This document shows, piece by piece, positions 1-11,540 of a DNA stretch of 11,540 bases. The notes below the pieces were generated by a model that did not search any database, was not told where the DNA came from, and was given only the letters and a program-made list of their open reading frames with translations. The stretch is from Chloroflexota bacterium (lineage in GTDB: Bacteria > Chloroflexota > Anaerolineae > Promineifilales > Promineifilaceae): assembly GCA_024223125.1 (NCBI GenBank), contig JAAEOP010001165.1, positions 1 to 11,540 of the forward strand, written 5' to 3'. Numbering within the stretch: position 1 is the stretch's first letter; each line of letters opens with the position of its first letter. The position numbers and the translations under genes are program-made.

Positions 1-1773
1 GCGCACCTCCTCGGCCGCAGACAACCACGAACCGCCACGTAATGCTTTGAACCCTCCTTCGGTTGGCCCCATCGGGTTGGTGTCGGTGGAGCTTTTATAG
101 AAGCGCGAATCGTACCAATCGTTAACCCATTCCATCACATTACCGGCCATATCATAAAGTCCCAGGGGAGAACGGCCGTCGGGATAACTACCTACCGGCG
201 CTGTATCTTTGTGCCCATCATTAAAAGCGGCGTCCCGTTCGGCCGAAGGACAATTTTGGTCGCAATAATTCAGCTTGACGCCATCGAACGCATCTCCCCA
301 AGGGTAGGTCAATTTTATGGCTTCATGGGGATCAAAAGCGGCCGCCATTTCCCATTCCGCTTCCGATGGCAAACGGCCGTCCCGCCATTGGCAAAATTGT
401 TCTGCCTGATACCAGTTGACAAACACAACCGGGTAATCATCATACGCCGGATCGCCATAATATGCGGGATGAGTCGTCGGGTTTGAACGAGATGGAGCTT
501 TACAAACGCCAGATTCCACACAAAGCTGGTACTGTCCATTGGTCACTTCAGTTTCATCAATATAAAACGCATCCATCTCAATGAGATGAGCCGGTTCTTC
601 ATCCCGTTCCCCTTCGTCTGTGCCCATGCTAAAGGTTCCGCCAGGCACAAACAACATCCGCGCCCCAGAATCGGTAACAAGAGGTTCTGGCGTGGGTGTG
701 GGTGGGTCGGTGGGGATAGGGATGGGGGATGGCGTGGGGGCCAGGGCAGTCATTGCTTCGACCACAGCCGAACGAACAGTAGCGGTAGCTTCAGCTTCGG
801 TCACATCCTGAGTGTTCATGTTTACGGCCGTCAAGCCCAAACCCACCAGCACAAGAATAACCAACAGCGCCGCCAGAGCATAAATAGTGCGTACTTCAAT
901 CTGGCGTCGTTTTCGCGGCGTCAAACGGGGGGGAACAGGCTGCCCGAACTGGTCGCTGGGGGCAGTTCGGCGGGGAGGCGCCGGTTCAGGTTCGGTGCGG
1001 CCGTAAGGCCGATTCAACGCCGCCGCAAACGCCGCCACCGATTCATAGCGGGCATCGGCGTGAAGCAACATAGCTCGATTAGCAACAATGGAGAGATACG
1101 GTTCCACTTCCGGGTTCACTTCCCGCGCCGGAATCAGATCGGCCAGACCGCTTTCTCGCTGCAACGCGCTGGGGGGCGTCTGGCCGGTTAACAAAGTGTA
1201 CAAAGTAGCTCCCAGACTGTAAATATCACTGGCAGATAAAGTCTCTTGCTGGGCTTGCTGTTCTGGTGAACCATACCCTTGTGTATGCGGACGAATACCC
1301 AAACCAGGCAACCCGCTGTCTACCAGATAAACATCTCCACCGGGCGTAACACGGATGTTGGCCGGTTTGATGTTGAGATGCAGTTGGCCTTGTGTATGCA
1401 AATAAGCTAATGGTTGGCAAACAGCTTGCAGCCAGTTGATGATGAGGTCGGAAGGGAAACGGCCGTACTGCCCCAACAACGTCTGCAAATCTACCCCATC
1501 TACATATTCCCATACTAAATATTGCCCCACCCCTTCTATAGCGAAATGGTCTAACATGCGCGGTAGTTGCGGGTGCTGCCATTGGCTGATCTGACGGGCT
1601 TGTTGGCGAAATTGTTTTTGAATGGTTATGGAAGGATCGAGGTACTCTTTTACGGCCGTGTTCACCCCATCCACAACATCCCACGCCCGGTACACAGCGC
1701 CATACGCCCCTTCTGCTAACAGGCTGACAATTTGGTATCGCTTAAGGAGACGTTCACCCGGTAATAAAGGCAT
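1..1773 (-). CDS. Kinase-like domain / TM helix / FGE-sulfatase fusion, partial (C-terminus off window)
   Basis: 591 codons are open from ATG 1773 to the left edge. An in-frame TAA two codons upstream fixes the earliest possible start. Residues 1-255 form a PknB-like kinase fold: glycine loop EGAYGAV (21-27), VAIK-type Lys42, activation-segment GYGSPEQ (166-172) and SDIYSLGATLY (182-192). However, the HRD motif reads HLN (132-134), so the catalytic Asp is Asn. The alpha-C Glu appears to be Gln58, and DFG is DSG (152-154). A hydrophobic segment at about 297-317 is a single membrane helix, followed by a Pro/Thr-rich linker (346-364). From about 372 an FGE/SUMF1-type domain runs to the edge (VPGGTFSMG, RLPSEAEWEMAA, GNVMEWVNDW, LRGGSW). 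Such kinase-FGE fusions are known in bacteria with large kinase repertoires. Here the domain would lie outside the membrane while a probable pseudokinase faces the cytoplasm. FGE-like domains in these fusions are often binding rather than sulfatase-activating modules; its C-terminal end is not visible. Confidence 0.9.
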   Translation of the reverse strand, partial: MPLLPGERLLKRYQIVSLLAEGAYGAVYRAWDVVDGVNTAVKEYLDPSITIQKQFRQQARQISQWQHPQLPRMLDHFAIEGVGQYLVWEYVDGVDLQTLLGQYGRFPSDLIINWLQAVCQPLAYLHTQGQLHLNIKPANIRVTPGGDVYLVDSGLPGLGIRPHTQGYGSPEQQAQQETLSASDIYSLGATLYTLLTGQTPPSALQRESGLADLIPAREVNPEVEPYLSIVANRAMLLHADARYESVAAFAAALNRPYGRTEPEPAPPRRTAPSDQFGQPVPPRLTPRKRRQIEVRTIYALAALLVILVLVGLGLTAVNMNTQDVTEAEATATVRSAVVEAMTALAPTPSPIPIPTDPPTPTPEPLVTDSGARMLFVPGGTFSMGTDEGERDEEPAHLIEMDAFYIDETEVTNGQYQLCVESGVCKAPSRSNPTTHPAYYGDPAYDDYPVVFVNWYQAEQFCQWRDGRLPSEAEWEMAAAFDPHEAIKLTYPWGDAFDGVKLNYCDQNCPSAERDAAFNDGHKDTAPVGSYPDGRSPLGLYDMAGNVMEWVNDWYDSRFYKSSTDTNPMGPTEGGFKALRGGSWLSAAEEVR

Positions 1774-1776
1774 AAG

Positions 1777-1893
1777 TTATCCGATCAACACCTGCGCTTC
1801 AGGGCACTGTACTAAGTCCGCATGAGAGTCGCTTTGCTGCACCATGGCAATCACAATTGTCAATGCACCCAAACGTCCCCAAAACATCATCAT
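1777..1893 (-). CDS. Tiny ORF resembling the C-terminal tail of TrkH/KtrB potassium transporters (probable remnant)
   Basis: The frame has 38 codons beginning with three consecutive ATGs. AGGAG (1898-1894) overlaps the TAG stop of the antiporter, and the third ATG (1887) has the best spacing, giving 36 residues. The stop TAA is 3 nt before the kinase ATG. The protein starts MFWGRLGALT, continues with a short hydrophobic stretch and ends CPEAQVLIG. That matches the end of TrkH/KtrB/NtpJ K+-translocating subunits, where the last helix carries GR-GPLT and the chain finishes YPE----IG. The remaining roughly 400 residues of such a subunit are absent. The likeliest reading is the 3' relic of a trkH-like gene whose body was lost or replaced by the antiporter next door. 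A translated single-helix microprotein is the alternative, since signal, frame and spacing are intact. The family match is from memory of the motif, not from an alignment. Confidence 0.55.
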   Translation of the reverse strand: MMMFWGRLGALTIVIAMVQQSDSHADLVQCPEAQVLIG

Positions 1894-1896
1894 CTC

Positions 1897-3825
1897 CTAT
1901 GCCTCTAAACGCAGCGATACATCATCTAGCTTCTCTGACGATCCTACAATCGTTAAAATATCACCTTGTTTCAACTTGGTATAACCATGTGAAATCAGTG
2001 CATGTCCGTCTCGTTGCACAGATAGAATCAATACCTCTAGCGGCAGCCGTATGTCTCGGATAGCCATGCCATCTAAATCTGGGTTGGCCAACTCAATATC
2101 TATCATCTCTTGATCATCGCGCATACCCAATAGCATGGAAGTACCAACAGGAGCGCGTACAAAATGTTCAAGGAGGGTAACAACGGCCGTTTGCGGTTCC
2201 ACAATCATAACGCCCAACTGATGGAACATCTCCGCATTAGCGCGATCATCTATTTTGACAACCATCGTGTCTGTGCCAAAATTTTCATACGCCAATTCAC
2301 AAAGACGGTAACTTTCAGCATCCGGCAAAAAAGAGACCAACGCATCCGCATGAACCATATCCAACGCCTGTAAATCTGCCAATGTTAGCCGAGGAATCAG
2401 GCTAGCCTCAACACCAGTTGCATTTAACTTTTCTAACGACTCCTGACTGGTACAAACTTGCTTCACCTGCCAATCATGCGCTTCAAGTTGTTTGGCTAAT
2501 TGCACAGATTCAGGTTTGAGACCAAATATCACCACATCTCGGACGCCATCAAATTCGGCCGGTTCGGCCCGCGTTCGCGCTTCGCCCATAAACTTAATGG
2601 CCCACTTAAAAAATGGCGGCCCCACAAGTTGGCTAAGAACAATGACCGCAATAAGGAGGGTGGCAAAATCTTCACCTAGAATTGGAAACTCAACCGCCAC
2701 TTCCTTGGCCAGACCCAAACCTACACCGGCCTGGGTCACAAAAGCCATCCAGCTAACGGCGTTTTGTTTCGGGGGATCACCAGCGGCAAAGCCACCAGCA
2801 AACGAACCAATAAAGACGCCTACTAAACGCACAATAAAAAGGATAACGGCAATGAGCCAGACTTGTGCCAATACATCTAAAGCCAATGAGGCGCCAGTTA
2901 AAGTAAAGAAGATGACGTAAATGGCGGGAGAAACATCATGGATGATTTTTGCAAATTCCAGACGAAACCGACTGTAGTTTGTAACCACAAAACTGCCAAT
3001 CATACAAATAAGAAGCGGTTCAAGGAGAATTTCAAAAGGGGCGTTTTCATGCGTATATTCACGCAGTAGATTGGAAAGAGCAAAAACACTATAGCCTACG
3101 ATGAGAACTATGATGATTTTTATGGCACGGTTACTGTTTGTGGAAATAATGGCTTGCAAAAGTTTGCCCAATCCATACCCGGCCGCCAGAGACAAAGCCA
3201 TTTCGAAGACCAGCAAGGCTACAAACAGCAAATTGATGCCGATATTGTTTAACAAAGCATCAGCCATTTCAGAACCCAGAGCAAAAAGAAGGATGACAGC
3301 CACATCAATGACCATGGTGACACCAATGGCTGTTTGTGTAAATTCTCCTTTCGCCCGTAGTTCATTAACAATGGCGATGACGGATGATGGCGACCTAGCC
3401 ACCATAATTATCCCGGCAAAAACAGATGCGGATACGCGGGCCATTAATGGCATTGCCTGCATAAAAGGTATGTAAGTGGACAGCCAAAAAACAGCTATCC
3501 CGCCCAAAACAGGTATGATGATAATGTTCAAGCTGGAAATCCAGGCAATGCTTTTGAAACGGCCGTGTAACTCTCTTAGATACAATTCGCTCCCGGCGGC
3601 AAAGGCAATAACAGCCAGAGACAACTCATCAATAACGCGGAGATTATCGAGGGCCTCCCTTCGCACCAGGTTTAAGCCAAACGGCCCCACGAGAATACCG
3701 GCAAATAAAAACCCGCTAATCAAGGGTAACTTGAAACGGGCAAAGAATTGACCAATTTGTTTGGACGCCAGGGCAATAATAATAAAAGCAGCTACGAATA
3801 CAATTGTTTCTTGAAGTTGAATCAT
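1897..3825 (-). CDS. CPA2/Kef-type cation:proton antiporter with C-terminal TrkA-N and TrkA-C domains
   Basis: This 642-residue integral membrane protein has about 12 hydrophobic helices in residues 1-412 and a soluble tail. The membrane part carries CPA2 hallmarks: LPLISGFLFAGILVGP (33-48), ARSPSSVIAIVNE (143-155) and Asp174 in a helix, the likely ion/proton-coupling acid. Residues about 428-545 have the TrkA-N (RCK) fold and about 565-642 the TrkA-C fold (QGDILTIVG). Such proteins exchange Na+ or K+ for H+ at the cytoplasmic membrane, gated by the RCK module. Unusually, the TrkA-N nucleotide loop reads FGLKPES (434-440) instead of GxGxxG, and the acidic residue expected after strand 2 is not evident (VCTSQ, 457-461), so NAD(H) control may be lost. 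The start lies 15 nt after the amidohydrolase stop with no good Shine-Dalgarno site, so translation may depend on the upstream gene. Ion specificity cannot be read from the sequence. Confidence 0.9.
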   Translation of the reverse strand: MIQLQETIVFVAAFIIIALASKQIGQFFARFKLPLISGFLFAGILVGPFGLNLVRREALDNLRVIDELSLAVIAFAAGSELYLRELHGRFKSIAWISSLNIIIIPVLGGIAVFWLSTYIPFMQAMPLMARVSASVFAGIIMVARSPSSVIAIVNELRAKGEFTQTAIGVTMVIDVAVILLFALGSEMADALLNNIGINLLFVALLVFEMALSLAAGYGLGKLLQAIISTNSNRAIKIIIVLIVGYSVFALSNLLREYTHENAPFEILLEPLLICMIGSFVVTNYSRFRLEFAKIIHDVSPAIYVIFFTLTGASLALDVLAQVWLIAVILFIVRLVGVFIGSFAGGFAAGDPPKQNAVSWMAFVTQAGVGLGLAKEVAVEFPILGEDFATLLIAVIVLSQLVGPPFFKWAIKFMGEARTRAEPAEFDGVRDVVIFGLKPESVQLAKQLEAHDWQVKQVCTSQESLEKLNATGVEASLIPRLTLADLQALDMVHADALVSFLPDAESYRLCELAYENFGTDTMVVKIDDRANAEMFHQLGVMIVEPQTAVVTLLEHFVRAPVGTSMLLGMRDDQEMIDIELANPDLDGMAIRDIRLPLEVLILSVQRDGHALISHGYTKLKQGDILTIVGSSEKLDDVSLRLEA

Positions 3826-3840
3826 ATAACTATTGTTCGC

Positions 3841-5088
3841 TTATCCTATAATGTTTTTCACAATACGGCCGTCCAGCATTACCAATCCAATATTATCCAC
3901 ATTTTCTAACGAACGGATATCCGCCAGCGGGTTTGTTTTCGTGATAATCAGGTCAGCCAGTTTGCCTGATTCCAATGTACCCACCCGGTCTTGCCAACCT
4001 AAACATTCAGCGGCCGTCTTCGTCGTCGCTACAATCGTCTCCATCGGCGACATTCCCACATTGCACATCAACCCCAGTTCACGCAGGTTTGTACCGTGTT
4101 TCATCACACCGGCATCCGTCCCCATAGCAATATTGACCCCAGCCTGAAACGCTTTGCCAATATTCTCACTATGGATTTCGATAACCTCCCGTGACTTTTG
4201 CACGCCCCACTCCGGCATTGAACCAGTCGCTTCAGCAATTTCCAAAACGGCAAGCGGAGCCAGCAATGTCGGCACTAAAAATGTTCCTTTTTCCAACATC
4301 AATTCAATCGCTTCATCATCAACAAAAATACCATGTTCAATCGAGTGAATACCGGCCCGTACCGCATTTTTAATACCTTCTGCCCCCTGTGCATGAGCCA
4401 TCACCTTAATACCTTTCCGGAAAGCCGCTTCCTGCACCATTACTTCTAGTTCATCCTGACTAAACTGCGTAAACTCAGGATGATCGGTTGGACTCAGGAC
4501 CCCACCTGTGGCACACACCTTAATGATCTCTGCCCCGGCCCGCAAAATCTGACGCACTTTTTTACGCACATCTTCTACGCCATCACAAATGCCTGACGGC
4601 CGTCCCGGCGTTTCCGAGAACAAATCCAAATTCGTCCCTGATGGCAGCCAGGTATCACCATGCCCTCCTGTAATGGAAAGTACCGATATTGAAATTTGCA
4701 TCCGCGGCCCCAGAATAACACCCTGTTCCACAGCCTGCTTCATACCTAAATCCGCCCCGCCTGCGTCCCGCACACTGGTAATTCCAGTATTCAAGGTACG
4801 TTCCATCCGATCCTGCGCGAGATAATAGTTCAGCGAAAACGGCGTACTGAGAAGGCGCATGATATTAATCTCTTCAAAAAGAAAATGGACATGAGTATCA
4901 ATTAGACCGGGTAAAATGTGGCCGCCTTGAGCGTCCAACATTGTTACTTCTACATCCGGTAGTGGAATATCTAATTTTTTCCCCACTGCTTGAATTTGAT
5001 TATCTTTTACTAGAACAGCGCCGTTTTGAATTGGGTCACGGCCGTAACCATCAATCAACGTTCCATTGTGAACCAGGGTATATTGCAT
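3841..5088 (-). CDS. Metal-dependent amidohydrolase (imidazolonepropionase / Xaa-Pro dipeptidase-like)
   Basis: This is a complete 415-residue cytosolic enzyme of the amidohydrolase superfamily. It has the usual N-terminal beta strands, a TIM barrel and a C-terminal return to the beta domain (GTLESGKLADLIITKTNPL). Visible metal-site residues are His66 and His68 (DTHVHF), Lys190 in IIKVCATGG (the position carboxylated in binuclear members), His232 (AHAQG), His252 (SIEHG) and Asp325 (GTDAG). The CATGG and SIEHGIFVDDE signatures place it with the imidazolonepropionase-like group, which includes Xaa-Pro dipeptidases and organophosphate-active relatives; the substrate is unknown. A strong site, AAAGGAG, ends 5 nt before ATG 5088 and confirms the start. 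It is the first gene of the minus-strand run leading into the antiporter, which follows after 15 nt, suggesting co-transcription. Nothing in the sequence links its chemistry to cation transport. Confidence 0.92.
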   Translation of the reverse strand: MQYTLVHNGTLIDGYGRDPIQNGAVLVKDNQIQAVGKKLDIPLPDVEVTMLDAQGGHILPGLIDTHVHFLFEEINIMRLLSTPFSLNYYLAQDRMERTLNTGITSVRDAGGADLGMKQAVEQGVILGPRMQISISVLSITGGHGDTWLPSGTNLDLFSETPGRPSGICDGVEDVRKKVRQILRAGAEIIKVCATGGVLSPTDHPEFTQFSQDELEVMVQEAAFRKGIKVMAHAQGAEGIKNAVRAGIHSIEHGIFVDDEAIELMLEKGTFLVPTLLAPLAVLEIAEATGSMPEWGVQKSREVIEIHSENIGKAFQAGVNIAMGTDAGVMKHGTNLRELGLMCNVGMSPMETIVATTKTAAECLGWQDRVGTLESGKLADLIITKTNPLADIRSLENVDNIGLVMLDGRIVKNIIG

Positions 5089-5148
5089 GACAACTCCTTT
5101 TATAATTTAACAAACATTGAGTGTACAGGATGTTATAATTGGCGGCGA
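5089..5148. promoter_or_regulatory. Divergent promoter region between amidohydrolase and methyltransferase
   Basis: The 60-bp AT-rich gap separates two divergent start codons. On the plus strand TGTTATAAT (5131-5139) is a perfect extended -10 (TG-n-TATAAT). The expected start at about 5146 lies only a few nt before the methyltransferase ATG at 5149, and no Shine-Dalgarno sequence is present, so a leaderless or nearly leaderless mRNA is implied. On the minus strand the same AT block reads TATAAC, preceded at 16 bp by TTGTTT, a plausible promoter for the amidohydrolase that would keep its AAAGGAG site. An apparent TGTACA-17-TATAAA minus-strand match is too close to the ATG to include that site. 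Promoter assignments are by eye. Confidence 0.5.
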
Positions 5149-6039
5149 ATGAAAAACAACGATACACACCGGCAATTAAAACAACTCTCAGAAGCGCTAT
5201 GGCGCATTTATCGGCGAGCAGAACGGCCGTTGCCCTGGCAAACTCACGATGGCAATCTCCCTTGGGACGATCCCGACTTCTCTGCCCGAATGTTGCGCGA
5301 ACATTTGGATGAATCTCATGGAGCCGCCTCCCGCCAGACGACCGAACGCAATCTGCAAATTGAATGGTTGTGGCCTCGGCTAGATTTACAACCTGGCTGC
5401 CACCTGCTCGATGTTACCTGCGGCCCTGGATTATACGCTGTAGAATTTGCCCGGCGCGGCTGCCATGTCACCGGCGTAGATTTTAGCCCGGCCGCCATTG
5501 CCTATGCCCGCGACCTGGCGCACGGCTACGATGTCGCCTCACATTGCACCTTCACCCAACAAGATGTGCGCCAATTTGATTTTGGCGCCAGTCAGTTTGA
5601 CGCTGCTATTCTACTTTACGGTCAGCTTGCCGTTATGAAAAAAGAAGAAGCGCAAACATTGCTGAGCTACATCGCCCAGTCACTTAAACCGGGCGGCAAA
5701 CTATGTGTGGAATTGCTCAACCAGGAGCATGTAGATAAAAGGTACAGTAATTGGTGGTTTACCGACGACGCGGGGCTTTGGGGAAATGATCCATTTTTGC
5801 ATCTGGGCGAACGATTTTGGCTGGAAGAAGAACAGCTTTCTGTGGAACGCTTTTACACAGTTCATTTGGAAAGCGGTGAAATGGACGTGATTGAACTGTG
5901 TGACCAAACCTATGCAGTTGGCGAAATGGTTGCAATGATGCGAGCGGCGGGTTTCACGGCCGTAACCCACCACCCCGCCTGGGACAACCTCCCGCTTTAT
6001 GATGCCCACGAATGGCATCTTTATGTAGCTGTCCATTAA
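5149..6039 (+). CDS. Class I SAM-dependent methyltransferase
   Basis: This 296-residue soluble enzyme has a Rossmann methyltransferase core at about residues 65-195. Motif I is LDVTCGPGLYA (87-97), the acidic ribose-binding residue is Asp111 (GVDFSP), the motif III region is FTQQDVRQFDF (135-145), motif IV is FDAAILLYGQLAVM (150-163) and the motif V/VI loop is LKPGGKLCVELL (179-190). About 65 N-terminal residues and a C-terminal beta-rich part flank the core. These motifs show S-adenosylmethionine binding; the substrate is not recognisable. The frame is open back to 5026, but those extra 41 codons overlap the divergent amidohydrolase coding sequence and look unlike methyltransferases, so ATG 5149 just after an extended -10 is preferred. 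It is a single-gene plus-strand unit that converges on nfo. Confidence 0.88.
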   Translation: MKNNDTHRQLKQLSEALWRIYRRAERPLPWQTHDGNLPWDDPDFSARMLREHLDESHGAASRQTTERNLQIEWLWPRLDLQPGCHLLDVTCGPGLYAVEFARRGCHVTGVDFSPAAIAYARDLAHGYDVASHCTFTQQDVRQFDFGASQFDAAILLYGQLAVMKKEEAQTLLSYIAQSLKPGGKLCVELLNQEHVDKRYSNWWFTDDAGLWGNDPFLHLGERFWLEEEQLSVERFYTVHLESGEMDVIELCDQTYAVGEMVAMMRAAGFTAVTHHPAWDNLPLYDAHEWHLYVAVH

Positions 6040-6056
6040 TGTTTATGCGGTCGGCC

Positions 6057-6080
6057 GTCATTCGTCAGCAGTCATTGGTC
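6057..6080. repeat. Degenerate heptad tandem repeat (GTCATTn)
   Basis: Just after the methyltransferase stop the sequence runs GTCATTC, GTCAGCA, GTCATTG, GTC in exact 7-bp register (6057, 6064, 6071, 6078). Short tandem heptads like this resemble the STRR microsatellites of cyanobacteria. Only about three and a half units are present, and the middle unit is degenerate. Confidence 0.4.
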
Positions 6081-6114
6081 GCCCACCCACTAATGCCGCT
6101 TTAATGTCACCGTA

Positions 6115-6143
6115 TTGACACTTGTGTGGCACTGTACTAAAAT
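6115..6143 (+). promoter_or_regulatory. Near-consensus housekeeping promoter in the intergenic gap
   Basis: TTGACA (6115-6120), a 17-bp spacer and TAAAAT (6138-6143) match the sigma-70-type consensus at 11 of 12 positions with ideal spacing. The expected start is about 6150. No credible plus-strand gene follows; the next gene, nfo, is on the other strand and ends at 6249. The promoter therefore appears to drive a short transcript ending at the hairpin at 6214-6240, or RNA antisense to nfo if read-through occurs. Confidence 0.6.
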
Positions 6144-6149
6144 GATGAT

Positions 6150-6250
6150 GTACTTCCTCCTCTCAACACCGATGGCCTGACCTTTTGGTCAAGATCAAAG
6201 GTATTCGGGAGATGGGCGGGGTCAAGGGGTTGCCCCGCCCTCCTGTTTTC
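6150..6250 (+). ncRNA. Candidate small RNA of about 100 nt with anti-Shine-Dalgarno-like 5' end
   Basis: The predicted transcript is bounded by the promoter at 6115-6143 and the terminator-like hairpin at 6214-6240. Near its 5' end is a pyrimidine run, TTCCTCCTCTC (6154-6164), complementary to GGAGG ribosome-binding sites. It is followed by a stem-loop at 6181-6201 (CCUUUUGGU and AUCAAAGG around CAAG, with one bulged U and one G-U pair), then the GC-rich hairpin. The only ORF inside is 10-12 codons with no ribosome-binding site. It matches no RNA family I recognise. The inference rests on promoter, structure and terminator placement; there is no evidence of conservation or expression. Confidence 0.4.
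6214..6250 (+). terminator. Terminator-like hairpin between convergent genes
   Basis: GGGCGGGG (6214-6221) pairs perfectly with CCCCGCCC (6233-6240) around an 11-nt loop, followed by TCCTGTTTTC. The stem is strong but the U-tract is short and interrupted, so efficiency is uncertain. It would stop plus-strand transcripts (methyltransferase and the candidate small RNA) just at the nfo stop codon. On the minus strand no U-run follows. Confidence 0.55.
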
Positions 6251-7121
6251 ATTTGATCAACTTCCGTAGACGAGCCAGATTCTCCACATCCATATCCATT
6301 TCAGTTCCATCAGCCAGTGTTTCCGTTTTTGGCGTCTCTAAATGGGCCGGATAGTCTGTCCAACGGGGGTCATTTACAAAATTGGCAAACCCTTCAACGC
6401 CAATAAACCCATCCCCAATATGCGCGTGCCGGTCTTTCCGGGAACCCAATTCAAATTTACTGTCGTTAAAATGGAAACATTTGATGCGCTCCAATCCCAC
6501 AACTTTGTCAAACTCAGCCATTGTGGCAGCATACGCTTCTGGCGAACGAATATCGTAACCGGCCGTAAAAACATGACAGGTATCAAAACAAACCCCCAGC
6601 CGCTCATCTCCGCCCACTTCGTTGATTAGATAAGCCAGTTGTTCAAACTTGAAGCCCAGGTTTGTGCCCTGGCCAGCCATTGTCTCCAGGCAAATGGTGA
6701 CATTGGGGGCGGTTGCGGCCGTTTCCACCAACAAACGCTGCAACGCTTCCACAATTTTACCCAGGCCGCTCTCCTCATCACTCTTGACATAAGAGCCAGG
6801 ATGAAAAGTCAAATACGGAATGGCAAACGCAGCCGCTCGTTCCACTTCAACCCGTAACGCCTGATAGGATTTTTCCCACAACTCCGCCTTGGGGGAAGCG
6901 ATGTTAATCAAGTAACTGGCATGAACGGCAACCGGGGAAATATCCTTGTATTTTGCGGCCGCTTCCCAGTATTGGGTCACATCCTTTTCCGTAATCGCTT
7001 TGGCTTTCCACTGCCGGTTACTTTTGGTAAAAACGAGTATAGAATCGCAGCCCGCTTCATGGCCGCGTTGAAATGCTTTATACAGTCCCCCCGCTGCACT
7101 CATATGTGCGCCTAATCGCAT
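6249..7121 (-). CDS. nfo: Endonuclease IV (deoxyribonuclease IV, AP endonuclease family 2)
   Basis: This complete 290-residue cytosolic DNA-repair enzyme cleaves 5' to abasic sites in base excision repair and uses three zinc ions. All expected metal ligands are present: His67, His107 (FHPGSY), Glu146 (CLETMAGQG), Asp180 and His183 (CFDTCHVFTAGYD), His217 (HFNDSK), Asp230 and His232 (DRHAHIGDG) and Glu262 (LETP). The N-terminal LGAHMSAAGGL and FTKSNRQW motifs are also typical, and the length is normal. AGGAG (7133-7129) lies 7 nt before ATG 7121. It is the last gene of a minus-strand cluster, separated by 72 bp of palindromic sequence from the small beta-repeat gene, so it may be read through or have its own promoter. 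Confidence 0.97.
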   Translation of the reverse strand: MRLGAHMSAAGGLYKAFQRGHEAGCDSILVFTKSNRQWKAKAITEKDVTQYWEAAAKYKDISPVAVHASYLINIASPKAELWEKSYQALRVEVERAAAFAIPYLTFHPGSYVKSDEESGLGKIVEALQRLLVETAATAPNVTICLETMAGQGTNLGFKFEQLAYLINEVGGDERLGVCFDTCHVFTAGYDIRSPEAYAATMAEFDKVVGLERIKCFHFNDSKFELGSRKDRHAHIGDGFIGVEGFANFVNDPRWTDYPAHLETPKTETLADGTEMDMDVENLARLRKLIK

Positions 7122-7137
7122 AATTGCTCTCCTGTAA

Positions 7138-7187
7138 ACAACGTTGTAAAACGAACTTTCAGTTCGTTGCCGATTTGGAAAATCGGC
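7138..7187. repeat. Back-to-back perfect hairpins plus a palindrome
   Basis: Three perfect inverted repeats sit almost end to end. The palindrome ACAACGTTGT is at 7138-7147. AACGAACT-TTC-AGTTCGTT (7150-7168) has 8-bp arms and a 3-nt loop. GCCGATTT-GGA-AAATCGGC (7169-7187) also has 8-bp arms and a 3-nt loop, and begins at the base after the previous hairpin. The block fills most of the gap between the small beta-repeat gene and nfo. Read on the minus strand, the last hairpin is followed by TTTT and could attenuate transcription. Its form resembles dispersed REP/MITE-type elements; no second copy occurs in the window. Confidence 0.7.
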
Positions 7188-7193
7188 CTACAT

Positions 7194-7418
7194 TTAGTAA
7201 TCAAGGTTCGACGGCCGTTCGCCGCTAAAAAACCCGATCGTCTCCGAACTATCCAACGTATAAACGCCATCACCAACCACACGCCAGACGCGGTTCCCGG
7301 CCAGATCAACAATAAACTCCCCCTGCAAATGGCCACTCGGCTCGCCATCTAGCGTGTGCAAAATATTTCCTTCTAAATAAGCAAACTGTTCCCCTTTGCG
7401 ATCAATTAACCCACGCAT
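7194..7418 (-). CDS. Small beta-repeat protein (possible 4-fold beta-flower family)
   Basis: This 74-residue protein has no signal peptide and no cysteine. It consists of short repeating units in which a Gly/Asp turn is followed by alternating hydrophobics: FAYLEGNILHTLDG, EFIVDLAGNRVWRVV, GVYTLD, IGFFSG. The D-x-x-G/N turn pattern recalls the small bacterial 4-fold beta-flower proteins, a structural family without known function; this assignment is by pattern only. AGGAGG ends 5 nt before ATG 7418, and its first bases are the TAG stop of the upstream LysM gene, indicating translational coupling. This, the regular repeat and the compact spacing argue for a real gene despite its size. Confidence 0.7.
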   Translation of the reverse strand: MRGLIDRKGEQFAYLEGNILHTLDGEPSGHLQGEFIVDLAGNRVWRVVGDGVYTLDSSETIGFFSGERPSNLDY

Positions 7419-7427
7419 GTCAACCTC

Positions 7428-8213
7428 CTATTCCTGTGCCGGAACCGTCAGCGTCGCCATGATATTGTCATCTCCATCCAGCAATGTCACCAATTCGCCT
7501 GGTTCCCACACAGCTTCAGATTGTCCCCAATATAAATCTGTAGCGCTGTTGCGTCCTGCACCTGTGTGAATGAGAATGCCGGCCCCGTCCCCAAACAATG
7601 TTACCTGAGCAAAGGTAAACAGATGCCCCTGCAAATCTGCCAGCTTCCAACCAACCAACGCAATGGCGTCACTGCCAGAGTTAACAATTTGCACCGCTTC
7701 TGTTTCCAATTCACCAGGGCTGACAACGGCCGTAATCTCCACCACCGCCTCACTACTCTCCGTCACCGTCACCGCCTCCGTAGGAATGGGGCTGGGCAGC
7801 ACACTGGCTGTCGGTTCGGCTGGCGGAACTGGCGTGGCAGTAGCCAATCCACCCACCGGAATCACCAGTTGATCGCCCACAGAAAGGATATTGGGATTGA
7901 CAATGTCGTTGGCTTCCACAATATCATCCAGCGGCACATCGTAAATCTGGGCAATGTTAGCCAGCGTATCCCCAGCTTTAACCACATGTACCGGCGGCCC
8001 CTCAGCTTCTGGTTCCAACTCCGGTGTCTCTGTACTCACGGGCAGCGCGGCAAACTCGGCCGTAGGTATTTGCAGAGTCTCAGACACGGCCGCCGGCGCC
8101 GACACCCCTTCACCCAAGCGCCGATTCTCCCAAAAATACAGAATGGCTAATACGACTACGGCCGATACAAAAATATTGACTAAAATAAACGGTAACATAC
8201 GTCGAGCAGACAT
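7428..8213 (-). CDS. Membrane-anchored LysM protein with lamin-tail-like C-terminal domain
   Basis: The protein has 261 residues. A short basic N-terminus (MSARR) and a hydrophobic helix at 7-27 form an uncleaved anchor. After an acidic Pro/Glu-rich spacer, a LysM domain spans about 75-119 (VHVVKAGDTLANIAQIY, then NPNILSVGDQLVIP), a glycan-binding fold for peptidoglycan or related polymers. A Thr/Pro-rich linker (124-155) leads to a C-terminal beta domain at about 158-257 that resembles lamin-tail (LTD) folds: VQIVNSGSDAIALVGWKL, FTF, ILIHTGAG, WEPGELVTLLD. Orientation should be outside, tethered at the cell envelope. The start is ATG 8213 with AAGGAG 6 nt upstream; a TTG start at 8228 would place that site inside the coding sequence. 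The next gene starts 9 bp downstream and uses this stop codon in its ribosome-binding site. Confidence 0.85.
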   Translation of the reverse strand: MSARRMLPFILVNIFVSAVVVLAILYFWENRRLGEGVSAPAAVSETLQIPTAEFAALPVSTETPELEPEAEGPPVHVVKAGDTLANIAQIYDVPLDDIVEANDIVNPNILSVGDQLVIPVGGLATATPVPPAEPTASVLPSPIPTEAVTVTESSEAVVEITAVVSPGELETEAVQIVNSGSDAIALVGWKLADLQGHLFTFAQVTLFGDGAGILIHTGAGRNSATDLYWGQSEAVWEPGELVTLLDGDDNIMATLTVPAQE

Positions 8214-8304
8214 AGCGTTCTCCTTCAAGATATTGTACTGGCAACCGTATAAAACTGCATCCCAAACAAAGTATAGAACTGTAGATAATGTTATGAGGAG
8301 AGTG

Positions 8305-8344
8305 ATAATTAGGTAATTGGGTAATTATCTAATTACAAATTGCT
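8305..8344. repeat. Degenerate octamer tandem array upstream of glgA
   Basis: Five consecutive 8-bp units have AATT at the same place: ATAATTAG, GTAATTGG, GTAATTAT, CTAATTAC, AAATTGCT. The 29 bp from 8306 match 26 of 29 positions with 9944-9972 at the end of glgA, so the two arrays have a common origin. They flank glgA on both sides. Confidence 0.65.
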
Positions 8345-8406
8345 TCACTACCTTAAATCAGGGACAATACAGAATATTCATTAACAAAGGCAAACATAAC
8401 TATACA

Positions 8407-8466
8407 TGTCATTCCTGCGTAGGCAGGAATCCACACAATTGGATACCCGCCTTCGTGGGCATGACA
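8407..8466. repeat. REP/MITE-like element with inverted ends
   Basis: The 60-bp element is bounded by TGTCAT (8407) and ATGACA (8461). Its left half is a perfect hairpin, ATTCCTGC-GTAG-GCAGGAAT (8411-8430). Its right half is a weaker hairpin, CCCGC-CTTC-GUGGG with one G-U pair. The pattern, including a reverse translation containing WIPAYAGMT, is that of the widespread bacterial intergenic repeat often mis-called as small proteins. It sits 37 bp before the glgA start codon. Confidence 0.7.
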
Positions 8467-8503
8467 GTCGAGAGATAATTGTATCGTTGCAGGTAAACAA
8501 CAA

Positions 8504-9946
8504 ATGGCAGACAAATTAAAGATACTATTTCTGAGCGCCGAAGTGGCTCCCTTTGCCAAAACTGGCGGACTGGGTGACGTTGGTGGTTCATTGCCCAAAG
8601 CCCTACACAACATGGGGCATGATGTTCGGGTCGTCATGCCTGCCTATCGTCAAATCGAAGCCGGGTATCCTGACGTTACCCCTCGTCCCGGCCATCTGGA
8701 AGTTCCTACCGGCGCCGGATTGTTAACGGCCGGTGTTTTTGCCGGCACACTCCCCGGCAGCGATGTTCCCATCTACTTTATTGCCGAACACAATATGTTC
8801 AATCGGGACAATATTTACGGGTACGGTGACGATGTTTATCGTTTTGCCTTTTACAGCCGTGCCGCGTTAGAATTAACGGCCGCTCTACATTGGAAGCCAG
8901 ATATCGTCCATGCTCATGATTGGCATTCAGCGCCTGCCCTCACCTGGCTGTCCACCGCCGGGCAAGGGCAGGAACATTTTCAGGGAATTGCCACCGTTTT
9001 TACCATCCACAATCTAGCTCACCAGGGACGTACAAACTGGCAAATCTTTGACTACCTGGGCATCCAAACTCATTCCCTAGCCGAAGAAGGGTATAACGAA
9101 GTGAACTTCATGGCGCGGGGCATTTACCATGCCACCATGGTCAACAGTGTCAGCCCCACGTATGCCCGTGAGATTATGACGCCAAAAGATGGCATGGGAT
9201 TGGACGGGTTACTACGCCATCGCCAATATGATGTTCACGGTATATTGAATGGGTTGGATTATGATGATTGGAACCCGGCCAACGACGGCCGTCTGGCCAA
9301 CCCATTTGACGCCGACCACATGGAAGCTCGCATCCACAACCGGCACTCCTTACAAGCCCAGGCCAATTTACCCCAAATAGACAACATTCCCCTGGTGGCG
9401 ATGATCTCCCGACTGGATGGGCAAAAAGGGCTGGACATTAGCGGCCGTGTTATCCACCAACTCCTGAACGGGGACGCCGGGGACGCCCAATTTATCATCT
9501 TAGGAACTGGCGCCAGACAGCATGAAGATATGTTCGCTCATCTGGCGGCTGCCCATCCCGGCAAAATGACCGCTTACCTGGATTACAACGCCGGCTTTGC
9601 CCCGCTCATTTATGGTGGCAGCGACATCTTCATTATGCCTTCCTTGTTTGAACCGTGTGGCCTGGGGCAAATGATCGCCATGCGTTATGGTAGCGTTCCT
9701 GTTGTACGGGCCACCGGCGGTCTGGCAGATACGGTAGCAGATGAACATACCGGTTTTCTATTCTACGACTATAGCAGCGATGCGTTTTGGCAAGCATTGC
9801 TGCGGGCGATTTATGTGTACAATGGCGATCGGCCGCGTTGGCAGCAAATTCAACACAATGGCATGACGGCCGATTTTTCGTGGCAGCGTTCCGCAAAAAA
9901 CTACCAACAACTTTATGAATGGGCGATGACCCGAACGTTTTCGTAA
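8504..9946 (+). CDS. glgA: Glycogen synthase (ADP-glucose type, GT5)
   Basis: This complete 480-residue cytosolic enzyme transfers glucose from a nucleotide sugar (normally ADP-glucose) to the non-reducing end of alpha-1,4-glucan. The N-terminal Rossmann domain holds KTGGLGDVGGSLP (19-31), with nucleotide-binding Lys19, and HAHDWHSA (136-143). The C-terminal GT-B domain holds SRLDGQKG (302-309, Arg303 and Lys308), PSLFEPCGLGQM (379-390, catalytic Glu383) and ATGGLADTV (403-411). Length is normal. ATG 8504 is the natural start for the family (MADKLKILFLSAEVAPFAK), although only a weak CAGG precedes it. malQ follows after 58 bp on the same strand, suggesting joint expression for glycogen or maltodextrin metabolism. 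The stop codon lies in the first unit of an octamer repeat array. Confidence 0.97.
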   Translation: MADKLKILFLSAEVAPFAKTGGLGDVGGSLPKALHNMGHDVRVVMPAYRQIEAGYPDVTPRPGHLEVPTGAGLLTAGVFAGTLPGSDVPIYFIAEHNMFNRDNIYGYGDDVYRFAFYSRAALELTAALHWKPDIVHAHDWHSAPALTWLSTAGQGQEHFQGIATVFTIHNLAHQGRTNWQIFDYLGIQTHSLAEEGYNEVNFMARGIYHATMVNSVSPTYAREIMTPKDGMGLDGLLRHRQYDVHGILNGLDYDDWNPANDGRLANPFDADHMEARIHNRHSLQAQANLPQIDNIPLVAMISRLDGQKGLDISGRVIHQLLNGDAGDAQFIILGTGARQHEDMFAHLAAAHPGKMTAYLDYNAGFAPLIYGGSDIFIMPSLFEPCGLGQMIAMRYGSVPVVRATGGLADTVADEHTGFLFYDYSSDAFWQALLRAIYVYNGDRPRWQQIQHNGMTADFSWQRSAKNYQQLYEWAMTRTFS

Positions 9947-9990
9947 TTAAGTAATTGGGTAATTACCTGATTGCCCAATTACCCAACATC
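9943..9990. repeat. Degenerate octamer tandem array at the 3' end of glgA
   Basis: Six 8-bp units start at 9943: GTAATTAA, GTAATTGG, GTAATTAC, CTGATTGC, CCAATTAC, CCAACATC. CCAATTAC is the exact reverse complement of GTAATTGG, so the array folds: GTAATTGG plus G (9951-9959) pairs with CCCAATTAC (9974-9982), or TTGGGTAATT (9955-9964) with AATTACCCAA (9977-9986). No U-run follows, so a classic terminator is unlikely. It is homologous to the array at 8305-8344. Confidence 0.65.
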
Positions 9991-10004
9991 GAGAAGAGGA
10001 AAAC

Positions 10005-11540
10005 ATGCGTTTCAAAAGAGCCGCAGGCATCTTATTACATCCAACATCCTTACCCAGCCGCTATGGAATTGGAGACTTTGGCAAGGCAGCATACCGTTTT
10101 GTAGATTTTTTAATTGATAGCAAGCAGGCGCTTTGGCAAATCTTGCCCTTAGGGCCTACTGGTTATGGAGATTCACCTTACCAATGTTTTTCAGCTTTTG
10201 CCGGCAATCCGCTGCTCATCAGCCCAGATAAATTGGTAGACGAGGGATATTTACCGGCTGCGGCAGTGGCCACAATCCCTCCTTTCCCTAACAACAGCGT
10301 AGATTTTGGGGCTGTTATTGATTACAAAACTGCCTTGCTTAAAGAAGCGTATCTCCATTTTCAAAAACAGGGCACGGCCGAACAACAGGAAGCGTTACAG
10401 AAATTCAACGCCGAAAACAGCTTCTGGCTAGATGATTACGCTCTGTTCATGGCTCTCAAAAATGAGCATAAGCAGCATGAAGGCGGCGTCTGGAGCAGTT
10501 GGCCGCAAGAAATTGCCCTCCGCCAGCCGAAGGCTATGAAAGCGTGGGCAGAAAAATTGGCCAATGAAGTGGCTCTGCATAAATTCCGGCAACACATCTT
10601 CTTTAAACAATGGTTGGCCTTAAAATCTTATGCCAATTTACGCGGCATACAAATTGTGGGCGATATTCCCATTTTTGTGGCTTATGACAGCGCCGATGTG
10701 TGGGCGAACCCCCATCTCTTTTTTCTGGACGCAGCCGGCCAACCAACAGTCATTGCCGGTGTGCCGCCCGATTATTTCAGTGAAACAGGTCAGCGTTGGG
10801 GCAATCCACTCTATCGTTGGGATTGGATGCAGGAAAATGATTATGCCTGGTGGGAAGCTCGGCTGGACATGAGTTTTGTCCAGGCAGATATTGTGCGTAT
10901 TGACCATTTTCGGGGCTTTGACGCTTATTGGGAAATTCCGGCTGATGAACCGACGGCCGTTGTCGGCCGTTGGGTAAAAGGTCCCGGCGCATCCATCTTC
11001 AAACGACTACAAGAAAAATTGGGCGATTTGCCCCTCATTGCCGAAGATTTGGGTGTGATTACCCCAGAAGTAGAAACACTGCGGGATGAATTTGATTTCC
11101 CCGGTATGAAGATTTTGCAATTCGGCTTTGGCGGGGAACGGAACAGCAGTTTTTTACCCCACAGTTTCGGCCGTAATTGTGTTGTTTACACCGGCACACA
11201 TGACAATGAAACGACAGTCGGCTGGTATCACAACGCCAGTGAAGATGAACAAGATCATGCTCGCCGTTATATGGCTGTCAATGGGCACAATATCGGCTGG
11301 GATATGATCCGGCTGGCGCATAGTTCAGTGGCGAACACGGCCGTTATCCCCATGCAAGATTTGTTGAGTTTAGGCAATGAAGGCCGAATGAATTACCCTG
11401 GTAAAGTGGGTGGCTACTGGCGCTGGCGTTACCGTGCCGATGCGCTCAACGACCATCTCATTTATCGTCTGCGCGAAATTACAGAACTTTACGGCCGTGC
11501 CCCCAACCAACAGCAGCTCACCAAAACAGAACCCATCACC
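10005..11540 (+). CDS. malQ: 4-alpha-glucanotransferase (amylomaltase, GH77), partial (3' end off window)
   Basis: 512 codons are open to the right edge. ATG 10005 is preceded by AAGAGGA at suitable spacing. Amylomaltases disproportionate alpha-1,4-glucans in the cytosol, freeing glucose and remodelling maltodextrins. GH77 signatures are GILLHPTSLPSRYGIGDFG (8-26), QILPLGPTGYGDSPYQ (45-60), GDIPIFVAYDSADVW (219-233) and GVPPDYFSETGQRWGNPLY (252-270). The three catalytic acids are Asp300 (RIDHFRGFD, nucleophile), Glu347 (IAEDLG, acid/base) and Asp400 (THDNET). The usual length is about 500 residues, so only a few codons and the stop are probably missing. It follows glgA by 58 bp, consistent with a glycogen synthesis and turnover unit. 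Confidence 0.96.
   Translation, partial: MRFKRAAGILLHPTSLPSRYGIGDFGKAAYRFVDFLIDSKQALWQILPLGPTGYGDSPYQCFSAFAGNPLLISPDKLVDEGYLPAAAVATIPPFPNNSVDFGAVIDYKTALLKEAYLHFQKQGTAEQQEALQKFNAENSFWLDDYALFMALKNEHKQHEGGVWSSWPQEIALRQPKAMKAWAEKLANEVALHKFRQHIFFKQWLALKSYANLRGIQIVGDIPIFVAYDSADVWANPHLFFLDAAGQPTVIAGVPPDYFSETGQRWGNPLYRWDWMQENDYAWWEARLDMSFVQADIVRIDHFRGFDAYWEIPADEPTAVVGRWVKGPGASIFKRLQEKLGDLPLIAEDLGVITPEVETLRDEFDFPGMKILQFGFGGERNSSFLPHSFGRNCVVYTGTHDNETTVGWYHNASEDEQDHARRYMAVNGHNIGWDMIRLAHSSVANTAVIPMQDLLSLGNEGRMNYPGKVGGYWRWRYRADALNDHLIYRLREITELYGRAPNQQQLTKTEPIT

What the first reader, a model, noticed from the sequence alone, without database searches (positions are those of the whole stretch)
172..11498. 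HIP1-like genome word: ACGGCCGT is enriched roughly a hundredfold
The palindromic octamer occurs 18 times exactly in 11.5 kb (chance about 0.2) and about 15 more times with one terminal change. It lies in genes on both strands and is read in different frames (TAV or GR), so codon choice or a protein motif cannot explain it. Known analogues are the cyanobacterial HIP1 octamer GCGATCGC and DNA-uptake words of Neisseria and Pasteurellaceae. A methylation target, mismatch-bias word or uptake word specific to this lineage would be new to me.
Basis: partly seen in the sequence, partly recalled or inferred. Interest (0 to 1): 0.75.

Follow-up and report, generated by a model that had tools for sequence, protein, structure and literature searches.

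The report
HIP-like genome word in Chloroflexota bacteria
A group of uncultured Chloroflexota bacteria carries the same eight-letter palindrome about every 500 bases, so strongly favoured that it freezes codons, reshapes protein sequences and also turns up in phages, much like the unexplained HIP1 word of cyanobacteria but in another phylum and with another sequence.

Summary
ACGGCCGT occurs 18 times in the window (0.18 expected) and is genome-wide in relatives: 15,031 copies in 7.2 Mb of the nearest named relative, G001 (reversed-word control 130). In that relative's order (Promineifilales, judged from one member's title) 27 of 56 genomes hold at least 990 copies per Mb; among 400 genomes drawn across the phylum only G001, an order member, is strongly enriched. 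Sister clades use TCGGCCGA, GCGGCCGC or bare CGGCCG: the core stays, the outer pair switches. Sites have extra dyad flanks (G at -4/-3, C at +3/+4).

The force is extreme. In G001, 495 of 509 Thr-Ala-Val tripeptides are written as the word (15% expected), and that tripeptide is about sevenfold in excess. Where encoded residues are unchanged, sites are kept 96-98% of the time against 24-58% expected (commonest frame). Spacing hardly matters, intergenic DNA shows similar enrichment, and tailed-phage contigs carry the word too.

Cytosine methyltransferases, Vsr and AddAB-like nucleases do not track it. It works like cyanobacterial HIP1, which passes the same saturation test (92 of 122). I read it as a dyad-reading factor that makes the word win; the factor is not identified.

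The parts
172..179 (.). ACGGCCGT site, read Asp-Gly-Arg in the kinase/SUMF1-like ORF (minus strand; gene name by inspection)
373..380 (.). ACGGCCGT site, Asp-Gly-Arg, same ORF
824..831 (.). ACGGCCGT site, Thr-Ala-Val, same ORF
1459..1466 (.). ACGGCCGT site, Tyr-Gly-Arg, same ORF
1652..1659 (.). ACGGCCGT site, Thr-Ala-Val, same ORF
2183..2190 (.). ACGGCCGT site, Thr-Ala-Val in the Na+/H+ exchanger-TrkA gene
3559..3566 (.). ACGGCCGT site, His-Gly-Arg in the same gene
3865..3872 (.). ACGGCCGT site, Asp-Gly-Arg in the amidohydrolase gene
4596..4603 (.). ACGGCCGT site, Gly-Arg-Pro-Ser in the amidohydrolase gene
5038..5045 (.). ACGGCCGT site, Tyr-Gly-Arg near the start of the amidohydrolase gene
5223..5230 (.). 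ACGGCCGT site, Glu-Arg-Pro-Leu in the SAM methyltransferase gene
5956..5963 (.). ACGGCCGT site, Thr-Ala-Val in the SAM methyltransferase gene
7211..7218 (.). ACGGCCGT site, intergenic
7726..7733 (.). ACGGCCGT site, Thr-Ala-Val in the LysM/lamin-tail gene
9285..9292 (.). ACGGCCGT site, Asp-Gly-Arg in glycogen synthase; the word stands at this alignment column in 11 of 49 glgA rows, the window included
10953..10960 (.). ACGGCCGT site, Thr-Ala-Val in the 4-alpha-glucanotransferase-like ORF (gene name by inspection)
11337..11344 (.). ACGGCCGT site, Thr-Ala-Val in the same ORF
11491..11498 (.). ACGGCCGT site, Tyr-Gly-Arg in the same ORF

Best explanation
ACGGCCGT is a highly iterated palindrome (HIP) of one Chloroflexota order, an analogue of cyanobacterial HIP1. 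SHOWN: in relatives of the window it is genome-wide and order-specific, acts on DNA whatever the frame or coding status, keeps individual sites frozen, takes nearly every synonymous opportunity, goes with an excess of Thr-Ala-Val tripeptides, is also found in tailed-phage genes, and its outer base pair differs between clades while CGGCCG stays. INFERRED: a homodimeric DNA-reading factor recognises the dyad (strict CGGCCG, lineage-specific outer pair, weak GG/CC flanks) and makes the word win over its neighbours by odds of roughly 75-250 to one, site by site and nearly regardless of spacing. My preferred route is biased resolution of heteroduplexes or damaged copies towards the word (a sequence-specific conversion drive, formally like selection with 2Nb about 5); direct selection for the factor's binding sites is nearly as likely. 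The factor itself is not identified.
For: Whole-genome counts 15,031 in 7.2 Mb vs 130 control; 27 of 56 order genomes at 990 or more per Mb; no comparable enrichment outside the order in a 400-genome phylum sample. Alternative words: TCGGCCGA 9,414 vs 27 and 7,668 vs 125 in two genomes, GCGGCCGC 63-fold in an 11-kb sample of a third, CGGCCG 21,019 vs 132 in another, clustered on a glgA tree. Dyad flanks not seen at the same place in control words; left and right halves independent in G001. Codon-matched retention, commonest frame, 369 of 376 vs 0.24 expected at 40-70% protein identity. Saturation 495/509 TAV and 275/302 [DNHY]GR in G001, 118/134 SA[DE] for the switched word in G028 and G011. 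Odds ratios about 203 (TAV) and 193 (GR) in G001; intergenic enrichment 134 (first-order) or 75 (second-order). Saturation falls only from 0.985 at 300-1000 bp from the next site to 0.961 at 30-100 bp. Tailed-phage contigs: TAV 175/189 as the word, with terminase, portal, protease and endolysin hits. Enrichment 47-124-fold in 25 of the 26 word-rich genomes whose samples could be scored; such evenness is more natural for a biochemical bias than for selection scaled by population size.
Against: No factor found. Selection with genome-wide diminishing returns would also give even odds. Transition neighbours of the word are commoner, not rarer, than transversion neighbours (weights 208 vs 52), which argues against canonical MutS-directed correction. 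Saturation is lower under 30 bp (42/47) and beyond 1000 bp from the next site (17/22), and lower for GR in phage contigs (88/136). When the word switched between clades the positions mostly did not carry over: 3 of 130 comparisons for TCGGCCGA and 2 of 50 for GCGGCCGC (4 of 3,972 and 0 of 1,687 at shifted places). Word-poor stretches are tolerated (largest gap 14.6 kb in the G001 sample). The weak clade writes 14 of 18 TAV as the word without any TAV excess (rows G003 and G035-G040), so saturation and abundance can part.
Confidence: 0.45

Rival explanations
1. Direct selection: the sites bind an abundant dyad-reading protein (nucleoid, replication or self-recognition function) and each site carries a small benefit, 2Nes about 5.
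For: All equilibrium patterns fit: retention, saturation, graded flank preferences with independent halves. Phage carriage fits a self-mark. Excess of transition-type one-off words fits mutation-selection balance.
Against: Similar enrichment in coding, intergenic and phage DNA and across 25 sampled genomes, with little spacing dependence, is hard to get from a located function unless returns diminish only genome-wide.
Confidence: 0.35
2. Methyltransferase-driven ratchet as proposed for HIP1 by Elhai 2015: an orphan cytosine methyltransferase reading CGGCCG or GGCC directs mismatch repair and accumulates the word.
For: CGGCCG core is constant, outer bases vary most, density is in the HIP range given in PMC4390886; MutS_I found in 45 of 56 genomes.
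Against: PF00145 hits in 14 of 27 word-rich and 12 of 29 other genomes; 30 fetched PF00145 loci fall into 23 clusters, largest 4; two word-rich genomes (G009, G042) have no PF00145 and only PF01555 matches near E 5e-4. The GmC version of the model predicts G before the core; the outer base here is A or T in most clades, though G in G045. Caveats: MutS_I is missed in 6 of 27 word-rich genomes, so one absent gene in one draft genome means little; only some hits were clustered; other methyltransferase families were not searched.
Confidence: 0.12
3. DNA-uptake word spread by biased natural transformation, as in Neisseria and Pasteurellaceae.
For: Lineage-specific word that changes between clades and reaches thousands of copies.
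Against: Tailed-phage genes carry it at comparable TAV saturation; palindromic with no orientation; little loss at short spacing. Competence genes were not searched.
Confidence: 0.04
4. Chi-like word read by AddAB, AdnAB or RecBCD.
For: Octamer, over-represented, carried by phages.
Against: Open frames over 900 aa with PDDEXK_1 appear in 9 of 56 genomes (a tenth, G057, has stops inside), 3 of them among the 27 word-rich ones; the other hits sit in frames of about 110-400 aa. Chi words are asymmetric (recalled).
Confidence: 0.04

Closest known systems
HIP1 (GCGATCGC) of cyanobacteria
   Same: Octameric palindrome at hundreds to thousands of copies per Mb; outer bases vary most; alternative words in some relatives. 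In 350 kb of Trichormus variabilis plasmid A, HIP1 passes the same saturation test: 92 of 122 Ala-Ile-Ala as HIP1 (0.034 expected).
   Different: Other phylum, other core (CGGCCG, not CGATCG), extra GG/CC dyad flanks, stronger saturation (495/509), no coextensive cytosine methyltransferase seen, and phage carriage. Whether HIP1 has such flanks or phage carriage was not tested here.
Alternate HIPs of Elhai 2015 (GGGATCCC, TCGATCGA, GGCGCC, rCCGGy, GCsGC)
   Same: Relatives that switch to another GC-rich palindrome.
   Different: Those are sporadic among cyanobacteria, and the paper finds at least one fitting putative methyltransferase in every such genome; here the switches run with clades on a glgA tree and keep the CGGCCG core (except TGCCGGCA in G023).
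DNA uptake sequences (Neisseria DUS, Pasteurellaceae USS)
   Same: Lineage-specific over-represented word.
   Different: Those are not palindromic and act at uptake (recalled); the present word also saturates phage genes.
Chi (RecBCD/AddAB) and Vsr/Dcm sequence bias
   Same: Octamer abundance and repair-linked sequence bias.
   Different: The enzymes are sporadic here: Vsr in 8 of 56, long AddB-like frames in 9 of 56.

Membership tests
Highly iterated palindromes (HIP class) | One palindromic octamer singularly over-represented genome-wide, hundreds to thousands per Mb | tested here: met
   about 2,090 per Mb in G001, top octamer of the sample by a wide margin
Highly iterated palindromes (HIP class) | One-base deviations concentrated at the first and last base | tested here: met
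   outer one-offs 1.25-4.7-fold, inner one-offs 0.25-1.2-fold of expectation
Highly iterated palindromes (HIP class) | Sites maintained beyond synonymous expectation | tested here: met
   0.96-0.98 vs 0.24-0.58, frame 0, four identity bins
Highly iterated palindromes (HIP class) | Methyltransferase for the core in genomes with the word (Elhai's correlate) | tested here: inconclusive
   PF00145 in 14 of 27 vs 12 of 29; no shared ortholog among fetched hits; draft genomes drop genes
HIP1 sensu stricto | Sequence GCGATCGC in cyanobacteria | tested here: not met
   different word and phylum; CGATCG counted only 5 times in the pooled G001 sample
DNA uptake sequence | Bias acts through transformation, so not on phage structural genes | tested here: inconclusive
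   phage TAV 175/189 as the word, against an uptake word; but whether these phages are lytic or temperate is unknown
DNA uptake sequence | Preferential uptake of word-bearing DNA | not testable with these tools
   needs cultures
Chi site | Cognate RecBCD/AddAB/AdnAB present | tested here: not met
   long PDDEXK_1 frames in 9 of 56 genomes, 3 of 27 word-rich; draft genomes, one Pfam family only

The most novel reading that the evidence does not exclude
A sequence-specific, methylation-independent conversion drive: a cellular factor recognises an extended dyad and fixes ACGGCCGT wherever mutation brings DNA close to it, in chromosome and phage alike, strongly enough to rewrite codons and add tripeptides proteome-wide; changes in the factor re-word whole clades, and cyanobacterial HIP1 is the same kind of process.
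Probability: 0.3. Interest if true: 0.93.

Novelty: new variant of a known kind. Interest (0 to 1): 0.82.

Why it matters
HIP1 has been known in cyanobacteria since 1995 without an agreed cause. A second system in another phylum, with another core, sister clades that switched words, relatives without the word and phages carrying it, gives comparative material. It weakens the methyltransferase explanation, suggests that a DNA-level force can alter protein sequence across a proteome (Thr-Ala-Val 3.3 per 1000 residues in G001 against 0.4-0.5 in relatives where this word is weak or replaced), and offers a host tag for unassigned phage contigs and a way to spot foreign islands. The saturation test (share of a tripeptide written as the word) can be run on any genome to find further such words.

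Tried and rejected
Hairpin or cruciform selection: rejected in G001, since flank bases left and right do not co-vary beyond chance (ratios 0.84-1.09); in the pooled other genomes position 1 gives 1.28, which I ascribe to mixing lineages with A or C there.

Protein motif or codon preference: rejected; three frames plus intergenic DNA, and codon-matched expectations are far exceeded.

Mobile repeat: rejected; sites share the 8 bp and weak flank preferences only.

Vsr mismatch endonuclease: 8 of 56 genomes. AddAB/RecBCD. Dedicated m5C/m4C methyltransferase. The PF01555 proteins of G001:C12 and G006:C65, which I first thought might be one orphan enzyme, look like different proteins on inspection (no alignment run).

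In-place switching of the word between clades: looked for and largely not found. The glgA alignment alone was too poor in sites to settle it.

Canonical MutS-type bias: transition and transversion neighbours behave opposite to expectation.

A correction: and 89 genome G045 (word GCGGCCGC) had slipped into the ACGGCCGT pool through its ratio of 83 to 5, and let it match itself. One search repeats with the 27 word-rich genomes (plus the window where orthologs are compared) only; observed retention did not change, expectations moved by at most 0.02, and I quote. One search was not repeated.

Led nowhere: homologue search of the amidohydrolase (list not used further), antiporter against plasmids (nine weak matches). 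Not followed: competence genes, m6A methyltransferases (GCGGCCGC holds no A, so m6A cannot be general), MutL. A cyanobacterial paper on HIP1 selection and periodicity (Xu 2018) is not held; I know it only through citing passages in PMC6604393.
Full report
OBSERVATION. The window (11,540 bp, 49.7% G+C) holds 18 exact copies of ACGGCCGT; 200 dinucleotide shuffles give mean 0.17 and at most 3, first-order Markov expectation 0.18. The core CGGCCG occurs 41 times against 3.9 expected. Of the 18 sites, 17 lie in genes in three different frames and one is intergenic.

SOURCE. No genome is held for the window. Its glycogen synthase is closest, among 33 loci returned, to uncultured Chloroflexota: 78% to 'Chloroflexi bacterium isolate BJ8', 69-72% to three others, one titled Promineifilum. 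Promineifilum is placed by NCBI in Promineifilales, Ardenticatenia, Chloroflexota; I use that name for the order that the genome search returned around G001 (the BJ8 genome), which contains that genome as G003. On a glgA tree the window groups with G006, G009, G001, G008 and G010 (96/78, not starred).

GENOME-WIDE AND ORDER-SPECIFIC. Whole-genome counts against the reversed word: G001 15,031/130 in 7.2 Mb, G002 9,707/186, G003 434/122, G004 181/268, G005 11/17. Of 56 genomes of the order, 27 hold 990 or more copies per Mb (threshold mine, genome sizes as rounded there). Among 400 genomes drawn across the phylum, three of which are order members, the highest count outside the order is 471 against a control of 252 in 7.7 Mb. 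In DNA samples the word is 47-124-fold over first-order expectation in 25 of 26 word-rich genomes; G042 rests on 5 copies with the expectation set to a floor, G029's sample gave 9.8 although its whole genome has 11,907 copies, and G032's sample held no readable bases.

WORD SWITCHING. The core is constant and the outer pair differs by clade. TCGGCCGA: 9,414 vs 27 in G011 and 7,668 vs 125 in G028. GCGGCCGC is 63-fold (13 copies) in an 11-kb sample of G045, whose CGGCCG count is 13,814 vs 51. G012 and G049-G053 have CGGCCG enriched with weak outer preference. G003 and G035-G041 show weak enrichment. G023 has little CGGCCG (447) and holds TGCCGGCA 3,665 times against 14 ACGGCCGT. On the glgA tree (48 genomes and the window; 8 of the 56 genomes are not in it) the six labels need 9 changes, shuffled mean 22.3; the TCGGCCGA/GCGGCCGC genomes form one starred clade (98/97) and the CGGCCG-only genomes another group (93/88). 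Position carry-over across the switch is small: for TCGGCCGA 3 of 130 site-by-genome comparisons (3 of 37 distinct sites) against 4 of 3,972 at shifted places; for GCGGCCGC 2 of 50 (1 of 4 sites) against 0 of 1,687.

ANATOMY. In 400 kb of G001 (770 sites, 1,925 per Mb) only outer-base changes are clearly in excess (TCGGCCGT type 4.7-fold, GCGGCCGT 2.3, CCGGCCGT 1.25); inner one-off words stand at 0.25-1.2 of expectation. Beyond the octamer there is a dyad preference: G about 0.5 at -4 and -3 (mirrored C), weaker G at -7, and a lineage-specific base at -1 (A in several clades, C in the G001 group). Non-word CGGCCG, GCCGGC, GGCGCC and TGGCCA in G001 do not show it at the corresponding place; GCCGGC and GGCGCC show a milder G (0.37-0.38) one base nearer the core, and CGATCG had only 5 copies. 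Halves vary independently in G001, which suggests a dimeric reader and not a hairpin. Density is 1,990 per Mb in ORFs and 1,186 (46 sites) outside them in that sample, 1,473 per Mb in intergenic DNA pooled from 18 genomes.

CONSERVATION OF INDIVIDUAL SITES. DNA alignments: G001 to G009 (85% identity) keeps 122 of 141 sites while flanking octamers are identical in 30%; G006 to G001 (78%) 18 of 18 against 14%; G033 to G034 (94%) 90 of 93 against 61%; window to G006 6 of 6, to G001 4 of 4, to G009 3 of 4 (15 directed comparisons, retention 0.75-1.00; BLAST seeding may favour conserved words). Protein-guided alignments avoid that seed. Overall retention is 0.31-0.54 in the bins below 80% protein identity and 0.83-0.96 above. 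When the overlapping residues are unchanged, frame-0 retention is 369/376, 840/876, 325/332 and 318/325 in the bins 40-70, 70-80, 80-90 and 90-100%, against 0.24, 0.26, 0.37 and 0.58 expected from the same codons elsewhere; frame 1 gives 23/24, 212/213, 146/147 and 214/216 against 0.06-0.34; frame 2 gives 0/1, 6/7, 26/28 and 52/53 against 0.03-0.40. Comparisons share genes; distinct sites per bin are 261, 242, 351 and 467, of which 252, 204, 341 and 457 are kept in every such comparison.

SATURATION. In G001, 495 of 509 Thr-Ala-Val are written ACGGCCGT (codon use predicts 0.151) and 275 of 302 [DNHY]-Gly-Arg (0.050); G033/34 give 145/151 and 76/85, G013-G017 62/64 and 34/48; in G028 plus G011 Ser-Ala-[Asp/Glu] is TCGGCCGA in 118 of 134 while TAV is the old word in 2 of 20; the window gives 8/8 TAV and 8/9 GR (its ORF set counts site 5038 twice). 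Genome by genome, 25 of the 27 word-rich genomes had enough sequence and write 86-100% of TAV as the word; the weak clade (G003, G035-G040) 14 of 18 but without TAV excess; G004, G018, G023, G024 and G055-G057 0 of 14 (rows printed before an error on its last item). TAV is itself in excess: 509 in 154,215 residues in G001 against 17 in 34,325 in the weak clade and 20 in 46,595 in G028/G011. So proteins as well as codons appear to have been changed.

WHAT THE FORCE DEPENDS ON. Odds ratios are about 203 (TAV) and 193 (GR) in G001, 130 and 171 in G006-G010; intergenic enrichment is 134 or 75 by first- or second-order model, 185 sites in 125.6 kb, inner one-off words 19 against 26 expected. TAV saturation by distance to the next site in G001 and G006-G010: 0.985 at 300-1000 bp, 0.974 at 100-300, 0.961 at 30-100, 0.894 under 30 and 0.773 (17 of 22) beyond 1000 bp, perhaps foreign islands. 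Among 1,543 TAV codings pooled over word-rich genomes, transition-type one-off neighbours are commoner (weight 208) than transversion-type (52) or two-off (47), the word 11,636; MutS-type correction predicts the opposite.

PHAGES. Grouped to 70 contigs or loci, 18 hold 5 or more copies; ten are 85-126-fold enriched. Ten proteins from such loci were scanned: terminase and portal (L344), portal and protease (L338), portal and protease/capsid (L308), endolysin (L334) and a weak tail/tape-measure match (L276) were recognised, two were not. Pooled over 27 loci of 17 of the 18 (L271 left out), 175 of 189 TAV and 88 of 136 [DNHY]GR are the word, 3.03 TAV per 1000 residues; the other contigs of the scan give 45 of 101 and 15 of 182 at 0.68 per 1000, part of that by construction since every contig was picked for holding the word. 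Contigs may be prophages, and two of them (3300024518_000002 and 3300024520_000223) look alike.

CANDIDATE FACTORS. PF00145 (m5C): 26 of 56 genomes, 14 of 27 word-rich and 12 of 29 others. PF01555: 52 of 56 at E up to 0.001, 45 over cut-off; G009 and G042, both word-rich, have only E near 5e-4 there and no PF00145. Thirty fetched PF00145 loci form 23 clusters at 45% identity, largest 4; thirty PF01555 loci form 15, largest 7 (further hits not fetched). MutS_I is in 45 of 56, missing in 6 of the 27, so single-gene dropout is about a fifth. Vsr 8 of 56. Long AddB-like frames in 9 of 56, 3 of the 27.

COMPARISON WITH HIP1. Elhai 2015 (PMC4390886; abstract, sections 2.3 and 2.5, first part of 3.4, and a term search) reports HIP1 and alternate HIPs in cyanobacteria, at least one fitting putative methyltransferase in every genome with a highly over-represented word (four strains lacking the CGATCG enzyme), and a GmC-directed repair model. 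PMC6604393 (passages) says HIP1 is held to be maintained by selection, citing Xu 2018 (not held). I ran the saturation test on 350 kb of Trichormus variabilis plasmid A: 224 HIP1, 156-fold; Ala-Ile-Ala as HIP1 92 of 122 (0.034 expected), [SGRC]DR 59 of 92, xRS[LPHQR] 36 of 128, the last two expectations being rough. The kind is the same; the Chloroflexota word is stronger by this measure and of a different core. Nine searches of the paper library listed no title or abstract on a HIP outside cyanobacteria; the library is open-access only, several lists were capped, and apart from the two papers above only listings were seen.

VERDICT. Real, order-wide, and a new variant of the HIP kind. Best reading: a dyad-reading factor makes the word win, by biased conversion or by site-by-site selection; the factor is unknown.

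Noticed in passing
G023 (whole genome), L111, L149, L260: This order member has 3,665 copies of TGCCGGCA (the reversed word used as control) and only 14 ACGGCCGT and 447 CGGCCG: a different highly iterated palindrome with a GCCGGC core.
   Followed up: partly
L161 (G001:C67:140001-160000): Only 6 sites in 20 kb where the other 19 stretches hold 22-60; the largest gap of the sample, 14.6 kb, probably lies here. Probably foreign DNA not yet carrying the word.
   Followed up: no
G012, G045, G030 whole genomes: GCCGGC is strongly scarce (132 in 4.1 Mb, 51 in 8.0 Mb, 864 in 7.7 Mb) while CGGCCG is very abundant (21,019; 13,814; 21,032); restriction avoidance or competition between the two words.
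   Followed up: no
L005 (Planctomycetota MAG contig), 20 kb: GGTCGACC is 17-fold over expectation (6 copies; GTCGAC 20) in a short sample: a possible further genome word in another phylum.
   Followed up: no
IMGVR_UViG_3300037515_000543, 3300024518_000002, 3300024520_000223, 3300037470_000663, 3300037762_000135, 3300028315_000509 and loci L344, L326, L308, L293: Viral contigs with the word 85-126-fold enriched; the word could assign them to hosts in this order.
   Followed up: partly
window 1-1773: ORF open at the window edge whose N-terminal part looks like a serine/threonine kinase and C-terminal part like a formylglycine-generating (SUMF1) domain, by inspection only; the shadow ORFs 586-1191 and 1226-1684 in it have no Pfam match.
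   Followed up: no
window 5026-6039: The listed TTG start is probably wrong; the methyltransferase likely starts at the ATG of MKNNDTHRQ, leaving site 5038-5045 in the amidohydrolase gene only.
   Followed up: no
L117 (G029:C1) with L052: The G029 sample has GAGCTC 4.2-fold enriched and only 4 ACGGCCGT although the genome is word-rich: perhaps a foreign or contaminating contig.
   Followed up: no
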